From a virus, in IMG/VR virus record IMGVR_UViG_3300031256_000003, positions 1 through 44,285 of that record: a stretch of DNA of 44,285 nucleotides; one strand, 5' to 3'. Of this stretch, positions 1,690 through 38,844 are shown in pieces (position 1 is the stretch's first letter; each line of letters opens with the position of its first letter). A model generated the notes under the pieces. It ran no database searches. It was not told where the DNA came from and saw nothing but the letters and a program-made list of their open reading frames with translations. The translations under genes were made by a program, and so were the position numbers.

Positions 1690-1743
1690 TTAGCACCTCA
1701 AAATTTATCTAGCTAAACCACTACAAACTTGACGGTAACCACG

Positions 1744-3012
1744 ATGCAAGTCGAGTCCATTCCAGTTGCGACCTTGGTCCCATACGCCCGCAATGCGCGA
1801 ACCCACTCCGCCGCGCAGGTGGCGCAGATCGCCGCAAGCATCCGCGAGTTCGGCTTTTGCAACCCGGTGTTGATCGACGAGCATGGTGGCATTATCGCGG
1901 GACACGGCCGCGTGCTGGCTGCGCGCAAGCTAGACCTCGACGCGGTTCCCTGCATCCGCCTTTCGCACCTCAGCGAGATTCAGCGCCGCGCCTACGCGCT
2001 TGCGGACAACAGACTTGCTGAGAATGCAGGATGGGATCTTGAGCAGCTAGGATTGGAGCTGTCTGGGCTGCGCGTCGACGGCTTTGATCTCGACTTGCTG
2101 GGATTCGATGAGGCGGAACTGGACGGACTGCTTGACGGAGACGTGCATAGCAGCGAAGGGTCAAGCGAAGATACAGAGCCGCAGATTGATCACGCCGATG
2201 AATTGCGAAAGAAGTGGGGCGTTGAAGCTGGTCAACTCTGGAAGCTTGGAGAACACCATCTGCTGTGTGGGGATTCGACCATGGCAGATGACGTGGCGCT
2301 GGCGTTGAGCGGAGACACCCCACATTTGATGGTTACAGATCCTCCATATGGGGTGGGATATAACGCAGACTGGCGGAACCATGCCTTTCGATCAGATGGC
2401 TCTCCCATCGCAGGTAGAGCCATCGGAAAAGTCGAGAATGACAACCAGGCGGATTGGCGAGAGGCATGGATTCTGTTTCCTGGAGACGTGGCCTATGTTT
2501 GGCATGCTCCGGGACCTCTGCAAGTTGCAGTGCTTCAAAGTTTGATAGCATGCGACTTTGAGGCTAGGAACCATATTATCTGGGCTAAAAACACGCTTGT
2601 AATAGGTCGCGGACATTACCACCATCAGCACGAGCCGTGTTGGTATGCCGTCAGAAAAGGGGCGACGGCGCACTGGAATGGGGATAGAAAACAAACAACA
2701 TTGTGGGAAATTGACAAGCCGCAAAAGAATGAAACGAGCCATAGCACACAAAAGCCACTTGAATGCATGGCGCGTCCAATCCGAAACAATAGTGCTCCTG
2801 GAGATTCCGTCTATGATCCATTCTCAGGCTCTGGCACGACGATCATTGCCGGAGAAAATCTAGGACGAAAGGTCCGCGCCATCGAAATATCCACGGCCTA
2901 TGTAGCCGTCGCCCTGCAGAGATGGGCCGATCACACCGGTAAAACGCCTAAGCTAGCCTCTCGATCCGCGCATTCAAGCCAACCGAAGAAAACCTCAAAG
3001 GCGAGCGTTTAA
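1744..3012 (+). CDS. ParB-domain / DNA adenine-or-cytosine (N6/N4) methyltransferase fusion
   Basis: 422 residues. The N-terminal part (about 1-90) is a ParB/Srx-type domain with LIDEHGGIIAGHGR (GHGR at 53-56). After an acidic linker comes an amino-methyltransferase with motif IV DPPYGVGY (about 199) and motif I DPFSGSGTT (about 358-366). Catalytic motif before the SAM-binding motif is the beta-class order. Such fusions are frequent in phages and are thought to protect virion DNA from host restriction. The ATG at 1744 follows a weak GGTAA; a TTG at 1729 is the alternative. No target-recognition specificity can be read. It lies immediately upstream of the small terminase. Confidence 0.9.
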   Translation: MQVESIPVATLVPYARNARTHSAAQVAQIAASIREFGFCNPVLIDEHGGIIAGHGRVLAARKLDLDAVPCIRLSHLSEIQRRAYALADNRLAENAGWDLEQLGLELSGLRVDGFDLDLLGFDEAELDGLLDGDVHSSEGSSEDTEPQIDHADELRKKWGVEAGQLWKLGEHHLLCGDSTMADDVALALSGDTPHLMVTDPPYGVGYNADWRNHAFRSDGSPIAGRAIGKVENDNQADWREAWILFPGDVAYVWHAPGPLQVAVLQSLIACDFEARNHIIWAKNTLVIGRGHYHHQHEPCWYAVRKGATAHWNGDRKQTTLWEIDKPQKNETSHSTQKPLECMARPIRNNSAPGDSVYDPFSGSGTTIIAGENLGRKVRAIEISTAYVAVALQRWADHTGKTPKLASRSAHSSQPKKTSKASV

Positions 3013-3406: not shown

Positions 3407-5234
3407 GCGCATCCGCAGCGGCCGCTATCGGTCGGCGTGGTCCCCGCCACCGATTGTCGCAGTGTCAGGGTGGGCCGGGAAATTTCGCTACTTATCGCCG
3501 GAAGCCAGCGCAGAACCCGGGCTATGGAACAATGCACGTGCGCCGCACCTCATCGAGCCGATGGACCGCCTCGGACCCTACAGCGAGACCGAGCGCGTGG
3601 TCTGCAAATTCAACTCTCAATCCGGGAAAACCGAAATCATCCTGAACTTCTGCGGCTACACTGTAGACTGCGACCCAGGGCCGATTCTATGCATTCAACC
3701 GAATGTCACCCCAATGGGTGAGGCATTCTCGAAAGACCGCGTGGCTACGATGTTTCGCGACTCGCCCACTCTAGCCGCGAAGATCGGACCAGTTAGAGCC
3801 AGGACATCGTCCAGTACGATCACGCACAAGGTGTTTGCCGGCGGCCATCTCACGATTGTGGGGGCGAACTCGCCAGCCGGTCTCGCCTCACGACCGATCC
3901 GGTATCTGGTCTGTGACGAGATAGATCGGTGGGAAGCGACCCGCGAAGGCGATCCGCTCACCCTTGCACGAAAACGCCAACAGACATTTCGCGCACGGCG
4001 TAGCGCGAAGGAATTGATCGTTTCGACGCCGACCTATGCGGATTTTGGAATCTCGGTCGAATATGCCAAGTGTGACACGCAAAAGCAGTGGGAATTGACC
4101 TGTTTGCACTGTGGTGAGTCACAATTCCCAGAATTGAAGCACTTTCAGCACGATGGAGACCTGCGCAAATTGCGCTATGTCTGCGGGCATTGCGGCGCAG
4201 AGCATGCGCTCGAAGATGAGGACACCGTCAAGGCGACTGGCCATTGGGTCACCGTGAAGCAAGGCGAGGAAAAGTCAGTCGGTTACTGGATGTCCCAATG
4301 GTCAAGTCCGTTCGCGCGCTGGGATGACACAGCGCAGGAATGGATTGATGCCGGAGATGATGCGCTGAAGCGCCAGGCAGTGACGAATACGGTGTTCGCG
4401 CTTCCCTGGGAGGGCGAGGGTGACCGGGTGGATGCGCATCTACTCGAAGCTCGCTGCGAGGACTGGGGAGATGCACTTCCAGACGGAGTGACTGACATCG
4501 CCATCGGCGTTGACCTGCAACAGGATAGGCTCGAGGCCGAGACGGTCGCCTGGGGGCCGGGCTTCGAATCGTGGTCACTGAGCTACGATATCCTGATTGT
4601 CGATCCGACGCGACCGGAAGAATGGACAGAGCTTGTCGATCTGCGTCAGCGCGAATGGACGCGCTTCGACGGCACCAAGCTCAAGGGAACCGCGCTCTGC
4701 ATCGACGCCGGAAACTGGAGCAAGCACGTGTACGACTGGGTCAAGGCGCAGCATGACCGCTGGGTGATCCCGATCAAGGGACTATCCGCTTTCGGTGCGG
4801 ACCCGCTGCATGGCTCCGAGCTGGATCGTCGTCGTCGCGCCATCAAGCGTATACACCAGGGCCGGCCTGTCGAGCCGCTTGGCGTCTCGCAGATCAAGCT
4901 CACCATCGACAAGCTGCTTTCGCAACCGAGCGATGCTCCGGGCTATTGCCATTTCCCTCTGGGCCGTGGACGAGACTATTTCGACCAGCTCACCGGAGAA
5001 CGCCTAACGCGCCATGGGAAGCGCGGCCGCAGGCCCCAGCTTGCATGGATGCAGATCCACGATCGGGTCGAGGCGCGCGACTGCCGCGTCTATGCTTACG
5101 CCGCACTTTTGCTGTCCGGCGCCACATTGGCTCGCAGGAAGCCGCTCCAGCAGACGACTGAAGCACTTCCATCGCGGGAGACGCCAGCGGTAACTCCGCC
5201 ACGTCGAACCCGCATTAGAGGCCTATTACGGTGA
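3387..5234 (+). CDS. Terminase large subunit (lambda gpA family)
   Basis: 615 residues from the ATG at 3387 (a TTG at 3378 is less likely). Residues 72-90 hold the deviant Walker A FNSQSGKTEIILNF, and 173-180 hold the Walker B YLVCDEID. A two-pair cysteine cluster (CLHCGE and CGHCGAE, about residues 239-270) is typical of gpA proteins. The nuclease half shows IAIGVDLQQDRLE and a later CIDAGNW. The protein would cut at the packaging site and drive ATP-powered DNA translocation into the prohead. The gpA family usually implies cos-type packaging, but I cannot place the cos site. Confidence 0.95.
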   Translation: MSHPALERIRSGRYRSAWSPPPIVAVSGWAGKFRYLSPEASAEPGLWNNARAPHLIEPMDRLGPYSETERVVCKFNSQSGKTEIILNFCGYTVDCDPGPILCIQPNVTPMGEAFSKDRVATMFRDSPTLAAKIGPVRARTSSSTITHKVFAGGHLTIVGANSPAGLASRPIRYLVCDEIDRWEATREGDPLTLARKRQQTFRARRSAKELIVSTPTYADFGISVEYAKCDTQKQWELTCLHCGESQFPELKHFQHDGDLRKLRYVCGHCGAEHALEDEDTVKATGHWVTVKQGEEKSVGYWMSQWSSPFARWDDTAQEWIDAGDDALKRQAVTNTVFALPWEGEGDRVDAHLLEARCEDWGDALPDGVTDIAIGVDLQQDRLEAETVAWGPGFESWSLSYDILIVDPTRPEEWTELVDLRQREWTRFDGTKLKGTALCIDAGNWSKHVYDWVKAQHDRWVIPIKGLSAFGADPLHGSELDRRRRAIKRIHQGRPVEPLGVSQIKLTIDKLLSQPSDAPGYCHFPLGRGRDYFDQLTGERLTRHGKRGRRPQLAWMQIHDRVEARDCRVYAYAALLLSGATLARRKPLQQTTEALPSRETPAVTPPRRTRIRGLLR

Positions 5235-36486: not shown

Positions 36487-36771
36487 TGGCTAATCGCACG
36501 GCTCGGTCGGTTCTCACCTACCCTACGGCTTATCGCACCCAATCAACGGTTCTCACTTGACCCTTGGCTCATCGCACAGCCTGAGCGGTTCTCACTTTAT
36601 GAACGGCTCATCGCATAGCGCTCTCGGTTCTCACCCCTGGTTCGTCTCATCGCACATCTGGGACGGTTCTCACCCGTCGATCGGCTCATCGCACTTCAGT
36701 CACGGTTCTCATAGTTACAACGGCTCATCGCACCCGCGTTACGGTTCTCATGCCTCATGCGGCTCGTCACT
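36487..36771 (-). repeat. TIGR-like array 1: seven 39-nt units with two conserved motifs and two variable spacers
   Basis: Read on the minus strand, two motifs alternate. The 12-nt motif TGCGATGAGCCG (usually preceded by G) occurs eight times, at plus coordinates 36487, 36526, 36565, 36604, 36643, 36682, 36721 and 36760. GTGAGAACCG occurs seven times, at 36508, 36547, 36586, 36625, 36664, 36703 and 36742. The period is exactly 39 nt. Variable segments are always 8 nt on one side and 9 nt on the other, and all seven pairs differ. The end copies are degenerate, and the copy at 36760 overlaps the stop codon of the Nop-like gene. No terminator is seen in the 37 bases beyond the distal end. Confidence 0.93.
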
Positions 36772-37840
36772 ATGCGGCCTTCTCGTCCTCGAACAGGACG
36801 TATCTATAGGGCGGCGTGATGTAATGCGCATGTCCCTTGATCGCAGTCGCAAACGGATTCGGCGGCTTTTGCCCATTCTCGACCTCAAACCATAACTCAT
36901 GCAGATGGCTCAAGAAGAGCTTCACCGTCGCCCGCCTGGCCATCGCATCAATGTGCCCATCTGGAAGCTTGCCCATCGCCAATACGTCCTTTTGCGCGTG
37001 GTTTGGGAACTTCTGTAGCTTTGCCTCCGCCAGCTTGGCCCGGCCCCCGGTGTCGTTTCGTACCACCTCCGCAGCCTTGCGCTGCCGGTAGAACTTCGCG
37101 TAGAACGCATCTTCGCGACCACCTAGCTTCACCATCTGGTCGCCGATCTTCCAGCACATCGTCTTCAGTGGCCGATTGAACGGTATTCTCGCCAAGCTTT
37201 TGATCGCGCTGGTCTTTGTCAGCGCCTTGGTTTCACCGGTCTTGAAATCGGTTGTTGCGTCGCGTAGCACGGTCTCCGGGTCACGTCCGAGAATGATGCT
37301 GAGCTGGCGCACCCGGAATTCCACGTCTCCAGTGCGCTCCTTCCAAAGCTCCTTCAGGGTGTCTGTCGACTCCCACCGCTGGCTCGGATCGAGGCCGGCA
37401 AAGCGCCACCAATGGCCGACCGTTGGAGGAACGGGTCGATAACCCAGATGCGCAAGTATGCCGGCGGACAAGACCGGGCCGATCCCAGGTACGGCCGAGA
37501 ACCACGGCCACATGGGATGAGTTTGCGCGAACGCCTGGAGGAAGCCAGCGGAGTTGGCCTCCATGGTCTCCGCCTGGCGAAGCATGTAGTCGACATATTC
37601 CGTGCTGGCTCCGCTATCGCTTCCGCGTTGCACAGCGCCGCCCTGATTGGCGAGCCGCTTGCGCATTTCCTGCATGGTGTAGTAGAGGTCCACAAGCACA
37701 CGTGCCTCGGCTGCAGTACATTTGCCGGGAGGTCCTTCGAGTGATGCTCCGGCCGCGCGCGCCTGTTCGCCAGCTCGGATTGCCGCGATCGCGTCCTTTG
37801 AAAGCTTGATGATTGGCGTTAAGCTAATAGGGTCTTTCAT
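36770..37840 (-). CDS. Tas-like protein: Nop / IS110 C-terminal (Tnp_20)-like RNA-guided DNA-binding protein
   Basis: 356 residues from the ATG at 37840; the frame opens earlier but that part overlaps another gene. Two helices (about 44-66 and 80-108) lead into the core FSAVPGIGPVLSAGILAHLGY...HWWRFAGLDPSQRW (about 114-156). This is the helix-hairpin-helix 'PGiG...A..l.a..g......F....Gl.P' pattern shared by IS110/IS116/IS902 transposase C-termini and Nop domains. The C-terminal half is helical and basic, ending with HIDAMARRATVKLFLSHLHELW. No DEDD catalytic domain, HNH or RuvC motif is present, so it looks like a stand-alone binding protein. It lies between two TIGR-like arrays, which is the decisive context. 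The ribosome-binding site is poor. Confidence 0.85.
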   Translation of the reverse strand: MKDPISLTPIIKLSKDAIAAIRAGEQARAAGASLEGPPGKCTAAEARVLVDLYYTMQEMRKRLANQGGAVQRGSDSGASTEYVDYMLRQAETMEANSAGFLQAFAQTHPMWPWFSAVPGIGPVLSAGILAHLGYRPVPPTVGHWWRFAGLDPSQRWESTDTLKELWKERTGDVEFRVRQLSIILGRDPETVLRDATTDFKTGETKALTKTSAIKSLARIPFNRPLKTMCWKIGDQMVKLGGREDAFYAKFYRQRKAAEVVRNDTGGRAKLAEAKLQKFPNHAQKDVLAMGKLPDGHIDAMARRATVKLFLSHLHELWFEVENGQKPPNPFATAIKGHAHYITPPYRYVLFEDEKAA

Positions 37841-37890: not shown

Positions 37891-38175
37891 TCAGCCAACT
37901 GCCTTGGCCGGGATCTCTTCCTGCTGCACTGCTTCCAGTTGCGGCGATCCTATCGGCATCATAATGGCCCGGTTCTTGGCTATGTCCGGGGCCTGGATCA
38001 TGAGTTTCTTGAAGCCCACGTTCATCGTGGCCCAAGCCCGCGCCTCCTTTAGGAAGCCCTGCACCTGCCGGTTTTTCTTCTCAATGTCCAAATCATCGCG
38101 CTCATCGATCTGCTCGACCTTATCGATGCAATAATCGACAACGCCATCCACACTGCGCTCAATCTTCTTGCTCAT
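37891..38175 (-). CDS. Small helical protein between array 2 and the Tas-like gene
   Basis: 94 residues, with AGAGGA nine bases upstream of the ATG. It starts MSKKIERSVDGVVDYCIDKVEQIDERDDLDIEKKNRQVQGFLKEARAWATMN, is charged and helical, then IAKNRAIMMPIGSPQLEA. I do not recognise it. Because it lies between array 2 and the Tas-like gene in one transcript, it may be an accessory factor of that system or an ordinary early gene. Confidence 0.66.
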   Translation of the reverse strand: MSKKIERSVDGVVDYCIDKVEQIDERDDLDIEKKNRQVQGFLKEARAWATMNVGFKKLMIQAPDIAKNRAIMMPIGSPQLEAVQQEEIPAKAVG

Positions 38176-38216: not shown

Positions 38217-38735
38217 TGAAAATTCGCACGATTGACGCGATTCTCACCTAGTTCAAGGCTCGTCGCATGATCCAATTTGTTCTCACAGTAGCTTCGGCTC
38301 ATCGCACCCCGAGGTCGGTTCTCACAACCCTCACGGCTCGTCGCATTCGCCTGGCGGTTCTCACCGGCTGAACGGCTCATCGCGCACCCACTACGGCTCT
38401 CGCTGGAAGTTCGGCTAGTCTCATTCCGTGCTCGGTTCTCGCGCCACTGATGGATCATCGCACCTTTCGAACAGTTCTCTCTCGCCATTCGGCTCATCGC
38501 ACTTGCGCTTCGGTTCTCACCACTGGGTCGGCTCATCGCACCCACGTTACGGTTCTCACGGCAGCTTCGGCTCATCGCACCATGCGAACGGTTCTCACTC
38601 TCCAGACGGCTCATCGCACCGACTTTACGATTCCCACTATTTTTACGGCTCATCGCATACCGTGCTCGGTTCTCATGCCGCTGATGGCTCATCGCATCGC
38701 GGGGACGGTTCTCACGGGCTTTTCGGCTCATCTAC
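38217..38735 (-). repeat. TIGR-like array 2: thirteen 39-nt units with two conserved motifs and two variable spacers
   Basis: This array has the same two motifs, period and spacer lengths as array 1. On the minus strand TGCGATGAGCCG-type copies start (plus coordinates) at 38256, 38295 and so on every 39 nt to 38724, with a badly degenerate one at 38217. GTGAGAACCG-type copies lie at 38238 to 38706. Copies from 38490 to 38715 are nearly perfect, whereas those from 38217 to 38481 carry several substitutions, so the array decays toward its 3' end as transcribed. The last copy (38724-38735) overlaps the stop of the upstream microprotein. Because 39 is 13 codons, an apparent 172-codon reading frame with a 13-residue repeat runs through it; I regard that as a by-product. 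Confidence 0.93.
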
Positions 38736-38844
38736 CAAAAAAAATAGCCAAATTGATTGCCACGATCGCACCCAGGACTGCGCCCACGATAAGGAGGGCG
38801 AACCAAGCGGGGGGCATGGGCTCACGGAGCGGTTCTCTGCTCAT
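38728..38844 (-). CDS. 38-residue membrane microprotein
   Basis: The ATG at 38844 overlaps the stop of the preceding gene (ATGA), and its own TGA lies inside the first repeat of array 2. After MSREPLREPMPP comes one membrane helix, AWFALLIVGAVLGAIVAINLAIFFG. A run of eight T lies near its 3' end. It is the second gene of the leftward operon. Function unknown. Confidence 0.62.
   Translation of the reverse strand: MSREPLREPMPPAWFALLIVGAVLGAIVAINLAIFFGR

What the first reader, a model, noticed from the sequence alone, without database searches (positions are those of the whole stretch)
38490..38735. Array RNA carries box C-like and box D-like elements
On the transcribed (minus) strand the longer motif contains GCGATGA, one base from box C (RTGATGA), and the shorter contains GTGAGA, reminiscent of the box D CTGA. 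Both motifs start GTG and end CCG. Tandem G-A steps in the two could form a kink-turn, which would fit a Nop-domain partner. The relation is inferred from short motifs.
Basis: inference. Interest (0 to 1): 0.75.

Follow-up and report, generated by a model that had tools for sequence, protein, structure and literature searches.

The report
Ordinary TIGR-Tas phage guide-RNA array

Summary
The strings are present: on the minus strand the 13-nt motif GTGCGATGAGCCG alternates with GTGAGAACCG every 39 nt, in two arrays (38736-38224 and 36772-36487) flanking one gene. That gene is a Tas protein: above NCBIfam's curated TIGR_Tas cut-off, profile match to solved TasR and TasH, and a TasH/TasR-like predicted fold without a nuclease domain, so TasA. 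The locus is a member of the published TIGR-Tas family, with a 39-nt rather than the usual 36-nt unit. The box reading is half right. Tas guide RNAs do carry boxes C and D on a Nop-type protein, but box D is the NG near the start, and box C the CC(A/G) at the end, of BOTH repeats. Across 59 related arrays the edge repeat is GAGCGAGCC(A/G) or a variant; its two pairs (3-8, 4-7) covary perfectly. "GCGATGA" comes from a 3-nt insertion in the middle of this edge; in the closest relative that stretch is variable, and only 1 of 60 edges keeps the base needed for tandem G-A pairs. There is no L7Ae gene, no outer stem and no excess folding. The kink-turn is not supported. A target search among relatives was negative.

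The parts
38224..38736 (-). TIGR array 1: 13 edge-loop units of 39 nt; begins with a 5'-degenerate edge (GGTAGATGAGCCG) and ends with a 3'-truncated edge (GTGCGA, 38229-38224)
   Evidence: parsing, sequence; begin/end pattern as published for TIGR arrays
38490..38735 (-). the interval of the finding: half of array 1
38607..38619 (-). an exemplar edge repeat GUGCGAUGAGCCG: box D (UG, positions 2-3), core pairs G3-C11 and C4-G10, 3-nt insertion relative to the family, box C (CCG, positions 11-13)
   Evidence: box definition from PMC12045711
38589..38598 (-). an exemplar loop repeat GUGAGAACCG: box D (UG), pair G3-C8 closing AGAA, box C (CCG)
36773..37840 (-). tasA gene, 356 aa, Nop-type protein without nuclease domain (stop codon 36770-36772)
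   Evidence: NF052498 TIGR_Tas 155.5 bits vs cut-off 100; profile vs TasR 9mty E 8.9e-24 and TasH 21kl E 2e-14; model pLDDT 89.7, VIA Z 17.7 to TasH, 16.8 to TasR, 11.9 to IS621
36487..36772 (-). TIGR array 2: 7 units; its first, degenerate edge overlaps the tas stop codon
37891..38175 (-). 94-aa open reading frame between array 1 and tas, no clear family; not detected in 18 records of relatives

Best explanation
A phage-encoded TIGR-TasA locus. The two arrays are transcribed on the minus strand, in line with tasA, and cut in the middle of each edge repeat into 39-nt guide RNAs of the form 5'-half-edge(box C)-spacer A(9)-loop(box D', box C')-spacer B(9)-half-edge(box D)-3'. A TasA dimer holds the guide: one protomer reads box D/C of the loop, the other the box D/C brought together from the two half-edges. 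Each spacer pairs with a different DNA strand, giving an approximately 18-bp target that is bound and bent, not cut, because no nuclease domain is present. The extra 3 nt in the middle of this phage's edge repeat lie between the two conserved pairs, at or near the processing site, and create the accidental likeness to box C. Shown here: array anatomy, Tas membership, lack of a nuclease domain, covariation of the core pairs in relatives. Inferred from the published TasR work: processing, dimer, DNA targeting, bending.
For: Alternating repeats, 9-nt spacers counted from UG, truncated terminal edges, tas gene between the arrays (published anatomy). Tas membership: curated NCBIfam model above cut-off, sequence profile to TasR/TasH, predicted fold. 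Among 62 related arrays with a clean 35-36-nt period, 59 align as 10-nt edge plus 10-nt loop: edge GAGCGAGCC[A/G] or a variant, loop GAGAGnACC[A/G] or a variant. In the 8 distinct edges, columns 3-8 (G-C, A-U, U-A) and 4-7 (C-G, U-A) pair in 8 of 8, and no other pair of variable columns does; loop 3-8 pairs in 14 of 15 distinct loops. Outer positions match between edge and loop: position 2 in 59/59, position 9 in 59/59, position 10 in 58/59.
Against: No transcript or guide has been observed. The published guides are 36 nt; a 39-nt guide is extrapolated. No promoter-like site was found ahead of array 1 on the minus strand (a weak test). No DNA target was found for the spacer pairs. Some repeats, mainly in array 1, are degenerate, so part of the array may be inactive.
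Confidence: 0.93

Rival explanations
1. One reading: GCGATGA is a box C, GTGAGA a box D, and the two form a kink-turn with tandem sheared G-A pairs, as in box C/D snoRNAs.
For: One-mismatch matches to both boxes. In a mature guide the two halves of an edge could write 5'-GCGA / UGAGC, i.e. two G-A steps next to the two covarying pairs. Within the window the G needed for the second G-A step is kept in 18 of 21 edges (TG in 15, CG in 3).
Against: Wrong partners: in tigRNAs an edge pairs with an edge and a loop with itself, not long with short (PMC12045711). The 59 ten-nt edges leave only G5 and A6 after the two pairs, so no tandem G-A can form. In the closest relative (58% Tas identity) the nucleotides between GCGA and AGC are T, GA, CC, CA, TA, TC or none; 1 of 60 edges could form the tandem. 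No stem I beyond the bulge, since the guide ends there. No L7Ae in 51 records. Rfam's only C/D snoRNA match is 15 bits against a threshold of 36, E 2.6. The family's authors contrast tigRNAs with K-turn-flanked snoRNAs.
Confidence: 0.04
2. A TIGR array whose edge insertion has a private role, for example a shifted processing site or a host-RNase signal, without being a kink-turn.
For: The window and its closest relative share an edge longer than the family's 10 nt, and within the window the inserted G is mostly kept.
Against: Length and sequence vary in the relative (0, 1 or 2 nt between GCGA and AGC), as expected for a tolerated linker. Arrays can expand by unit duplication, so uniformity inside one array is weak evidence of selection.
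Confidence: 0.2
3. An IS110-type transposase with an associated bridge RNA rather than a Tas system.
For: PF02371 weak match; PHROG 4285 named transposase.
Against: IS110 NCBIfam model scores 20.1 against a cut-off of 140 while the TIGR_Tas model passes; no room for a DEDD/RuvC domain; tandem dual-repeat arrays are not a feature of IS110.
Confidence: 0.01

Closest known systems
TIGR-Tas systems, TasA type with dual-repeat arrays (Faure et al. 2025, PMC12045711)
   Same: Tas/Nop protein next to tandem arrays of alternating edge and loop repeats with 9-nt spacers, arrays upstream and downstream, truncated terminal edges, box D at the start and box C at the end of each repeat, phage location
   Different: Unit is 39 nt instead of the usual 36, because the edge repeat has 3 more nucleotides in its middle; box C is CCG rather than CCA; only a weak terminator-like match after array 1
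Closest relative found: viral contig IMGVR_UViG_3300034196_000113 (L009/L015)
   Same: Tas 58% identical; edge GCGA(0-2 nt)AGCC, loop GAGAACCG, mainly 39-nt spacing
   Different: Insertion variable in length and sequence; at least 60 edges detected over about 4.6 kb, far more than the window's 21
Box C/D snoRNA and snoRNP (Nop5/Nop58, L7Ae/15.5K, fibrillarin)
   Same: Nop-domain protein, two guides flanked by boxes C and D (a published homology)
   Different: No kink-turn, no L7Ae gene, no RUGAUGA/CUGA boxes conserved in the family; DNA rather than RNA target (by homology)
IS110/IS621 bridge-RNA recombinases
   Same: Shared Nop-like RNA-binding fold (VIA Z 11.9)
   Different: No DEDD recombinase domain; single bridge RNA rather than an array

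Membership tests
TIGR-Tas | Tas protein with Nop-type RNA-binding domain | tested here: met
   NF052498 155.5 bits, cut-off 100; TasR E 8.9e-24, TasH E 2e-14; fold Z 17.7/16.8
TIGR-Tas | Adjacent array of two alternating 8-12-nt repeats with about 9-nt spacers | tested here: met
   edge 12 nt and loop 9 nt counted from UG, spacers 9 nt, two arrays flanking tas
TIGR-Tas | Box D (UG) at start and box C (CC + purine) at end of both repeats, matched between edge and loop | tested here: met
   for the window; for 59 relatives (positions 2, 9, 10 agree in 58-59 of 59)
TIGR-Tas | Covarying pairs inside the edge repeat | tested here: met
   3-8 and 4-7 standard in 8/8 distinct edges with 3 and 2 pair types; window has the matching G3-C11 and C4-G10
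TIGR-Tas | Processing into short guides and guided DNA binding | not testable with these tools
   needs RNA sequencing and binding assays
TasA subtype | No nuclease domain | tested here: met
   the match begins at residue ~38-46, leaving too little N-terminal sequence for HNH or RuvC; no such Pfam match
box C/D snoRNA | RUGAUGA and CUGA boxes forming a kink-turn, conserved in relatives | tested here: not met
box C/D snoRNA | L7Ae/15.5K partner | tested here: inconclusive
   PF01248 absent in this record and 50 relatives' records; the host genome is unknown, so a host protein is not excluded
IS110 transposase | IS110 model above curated cut-off | tested here: not met
   20.1 bits against 140

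The most novel reading that the evidence does not exclude
In this phage's lineage the edge repeat gained an insertion that lets the two guide ends stack as two tandem sheared G-A pairs on the two covarying pairs (GCGA/UGAGC), an independent approach to the snoRNA kink-turn in a Tas guide.
Probability: 0.04. Interest if true: 0.55.

Novelty: new member of a known kind. Interest (0 to 1): 0.3.

Why it matters
It corrects the motif assignment for this array and gives a comparative, sequence-only test of the tigRNA box model in nuclease-free TasA systems: the box C/D pair (3-8) itself covaries here (G-C, A-U, U-A), whereas the published set of nine TasR arrays is described as absolutely conserved in it. 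Edge and loop need not use the same pair (14 of 59 loci differ), while the outer box positions agree, which separates pairing constraints from protein contacts. Whether the paper's supplementary figure already shows this for TasA could not be checked.

Tried and rejected
Kink-turn between long and short motif: rejected (see rivals). RNA folding of units and array: no signal; the hand-typed 39-nt units joined wrong spacers and are not used. Rfam: only sub-threshold chance matches. Target search: about 1000 spacer pairs from 64 loci against about 1.2-1.6 Mb of related phage sequence, two strand orders, several gaps, mispaired spacers as control: no excess. One window guide (unit at 36694) matches 17 of 18 bases in the ParB-like gene of the closest relative, but the rate over all guides equals the mispaired controls. 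Exact 18-mer scans of viral contigs gave 1 and 11 contigs (9 of the 11 are one redundant group carrying the same gene) against 0 and 0 for two mispaired controls; the hits lie in unrelated genes and are read as chance. Scan of viral contigs with the exact window repeats: none. tblastn against annotated phages: no convincing relative.

Full report
Observation. On the minus strand, GTGCGATGAGCCG and GTGAGAACCG alternate with 8 nt between them, period 39, from 38736 down to 38224; a second array runs 36772 to 36487. Between them lies one clear gene, 36773-37840 minus, 356 aa. The chance of such a likeness in one random motif pair is about 0.4 to 1.4%, which is modest for a resemblance found after the fact, and the copies are not independent.

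What the gene is. NCBIfam's curated TIGR_Tas model matches at 155.5 bits (cut-off 100), while the IS110 model fails its own. A 50-member profile of relatives finds solved TasR (9mty, E 8.9e-24), TasH (21kl, E 2e-14) and IS621 (E 1.3e-5). The AlphaFold model built on that alignment has mean pLDDT 89.7 and aligns to TasH at Z 17.7 (232 residues, 4.0 A) and to TasR at Z 16.8 (195 residues, 3.0 A), with IS621 at 11.9 and unrelated helical proteins at 7.8 and below. The match starts near residue 38-46, so there is no room for the HNH or RuvC domain: TasA.

What the array is. [quoted passage not shown] both repeats begin with UG (named box D) and end with CCA (named box C); arrays begin and end with truncated edges. 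Counted from UG, the window has a 12-nt edge, a 9-nt loop and 9-nt spacers. Array 1 begins with an edge whose 5' part is degenerate and ends with GTGCGA, the 5' half of an edge. The long motif is therefore the edge and the short one the loop.

Comparison with relatives. A profile scan gave 80 viral loci and one bacterial locus. A periodic-profile search found clean arrays of period 35-36 in 62 of these loci. In 59 the edge is 10 nt, GAGCGAGCC[A/G] or a variant, and the loop is GAGAGnACC[A/G] or a variant. Among 8 distinct edges, columns 3-8 occur as G-C, A-U and U-A and columns 4-7 as C-G and U-A, pairing in all eight; no other pair of variable columns does so. The central G5-A6 never varies. 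Loop columns 3-8 pair in 14 of 15 distinct loops. Positions 2 and 9 agree between edge and loop in 59 of 59 loci and position 10 in 58 of 59. In 14 of 59 loci the 3-8 pair of the edge differs from that of the loop. No tree of these loci was built, so the number of independent changes is not known; several loci are near-duplicates.

What the 'box C' is. Aligned to the family, the window's edge is GTGCG-ATG-AGCCG: three extra nucleotides between the two conserved pairs. The string GCGATGA exists only because of them; the family's edge is 4 mismatches from RTGATGA. The closest relative also has a longer edge, but there the nucleotides between GCGA and AGC number 0, 1 or 2 and read T, GA, CC, CA, TA, TC and so on; 1 of 60 could make the second G-A pair. 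Against this, the window itself keeps that G in 18 of 21 edges, which is why a private role of the insertion is kept as a rival.

Kink-turn. From general knowledge, a kink-turn needs two stems, a 3-nt bulge and two tandem sheared G-A pairs. In a tigRNA the guide ends at the edge, so there is no outer stem; in the 59 relatives there is room for one G-A at most; L7Ae is absent from this and 50 related records; folding gives nothing beyond shuffles; and the authors of the family describe K-turns as the snoRNA's feature, in contrast to the compact tigRNA repeats. The host could supply an L7Ae-like protein; that cannot be tested without knowing the host.

Function. By homology the array makes paired guides that bring a TasA dimer to an approximately 18-bp DNA site without cutting. 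I looked for targets of about 1000 guides in the related phages and in the window: the numbers equal those of mispaired guides. A 17-of-18 match of one window guide to the ParB-like gene of the closest relative is within background.

Verdict.

Noticed in passing
window 38697-38658 and 38463-38424, minus strand: Two units six periods apart carry nearly the same guide pair (TCAGCGGC/AGCACGGT and TCAGTGGC/AGCACGGA, 7 of 8 in both spacers) while neighbouring spacers are unrelated; a duplicated unit moved within the array, or two guides to variants of one target.
   Followed up: partly
L015 2194-6788 (IMGVR_UViG_3300034196_000113): Closest relative has at least 60 edge repeats over about 4.6 kb on both sides of tas, far above the 5-15 units described as usual, with strongly degenerate repeats.
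   Followed up: partly
59 relatives' arrays, e.g. L017, L038, L058, L044: The box C/D pair of the edge covaries (G-C, A-U, U-A) and may differ from that of the loop, whereas the nine published TasR arrays are described as absolutely conserved in it.
   Followed up: yes
L095 (Acidobacteriaceae bacterium KBS 96, KB906767.1) 4001-4792; L040 4001-4789: The tas reading frame contains one stop codon within the tblastn-matched range; possible pseudogenes.
   Followed up: no
window 37891-38175, minus strand: 94-aa ORF between array 1 and tas, without family match and not detected in 18 records of relatives.
   Followed up: partly
window 1729-3009, plus strand: ParB-like domain fused to a DNA methyltransferase (PHROGs 498, 15396).
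   Followed up: no
window 37840-36773, residues about 157-218 of Tas: About 60-residue stretch, also in the closest relatives but absent from the shorter Tas proteins (such as L011) that go almost straight from W156 to P220.
   Followed up: no
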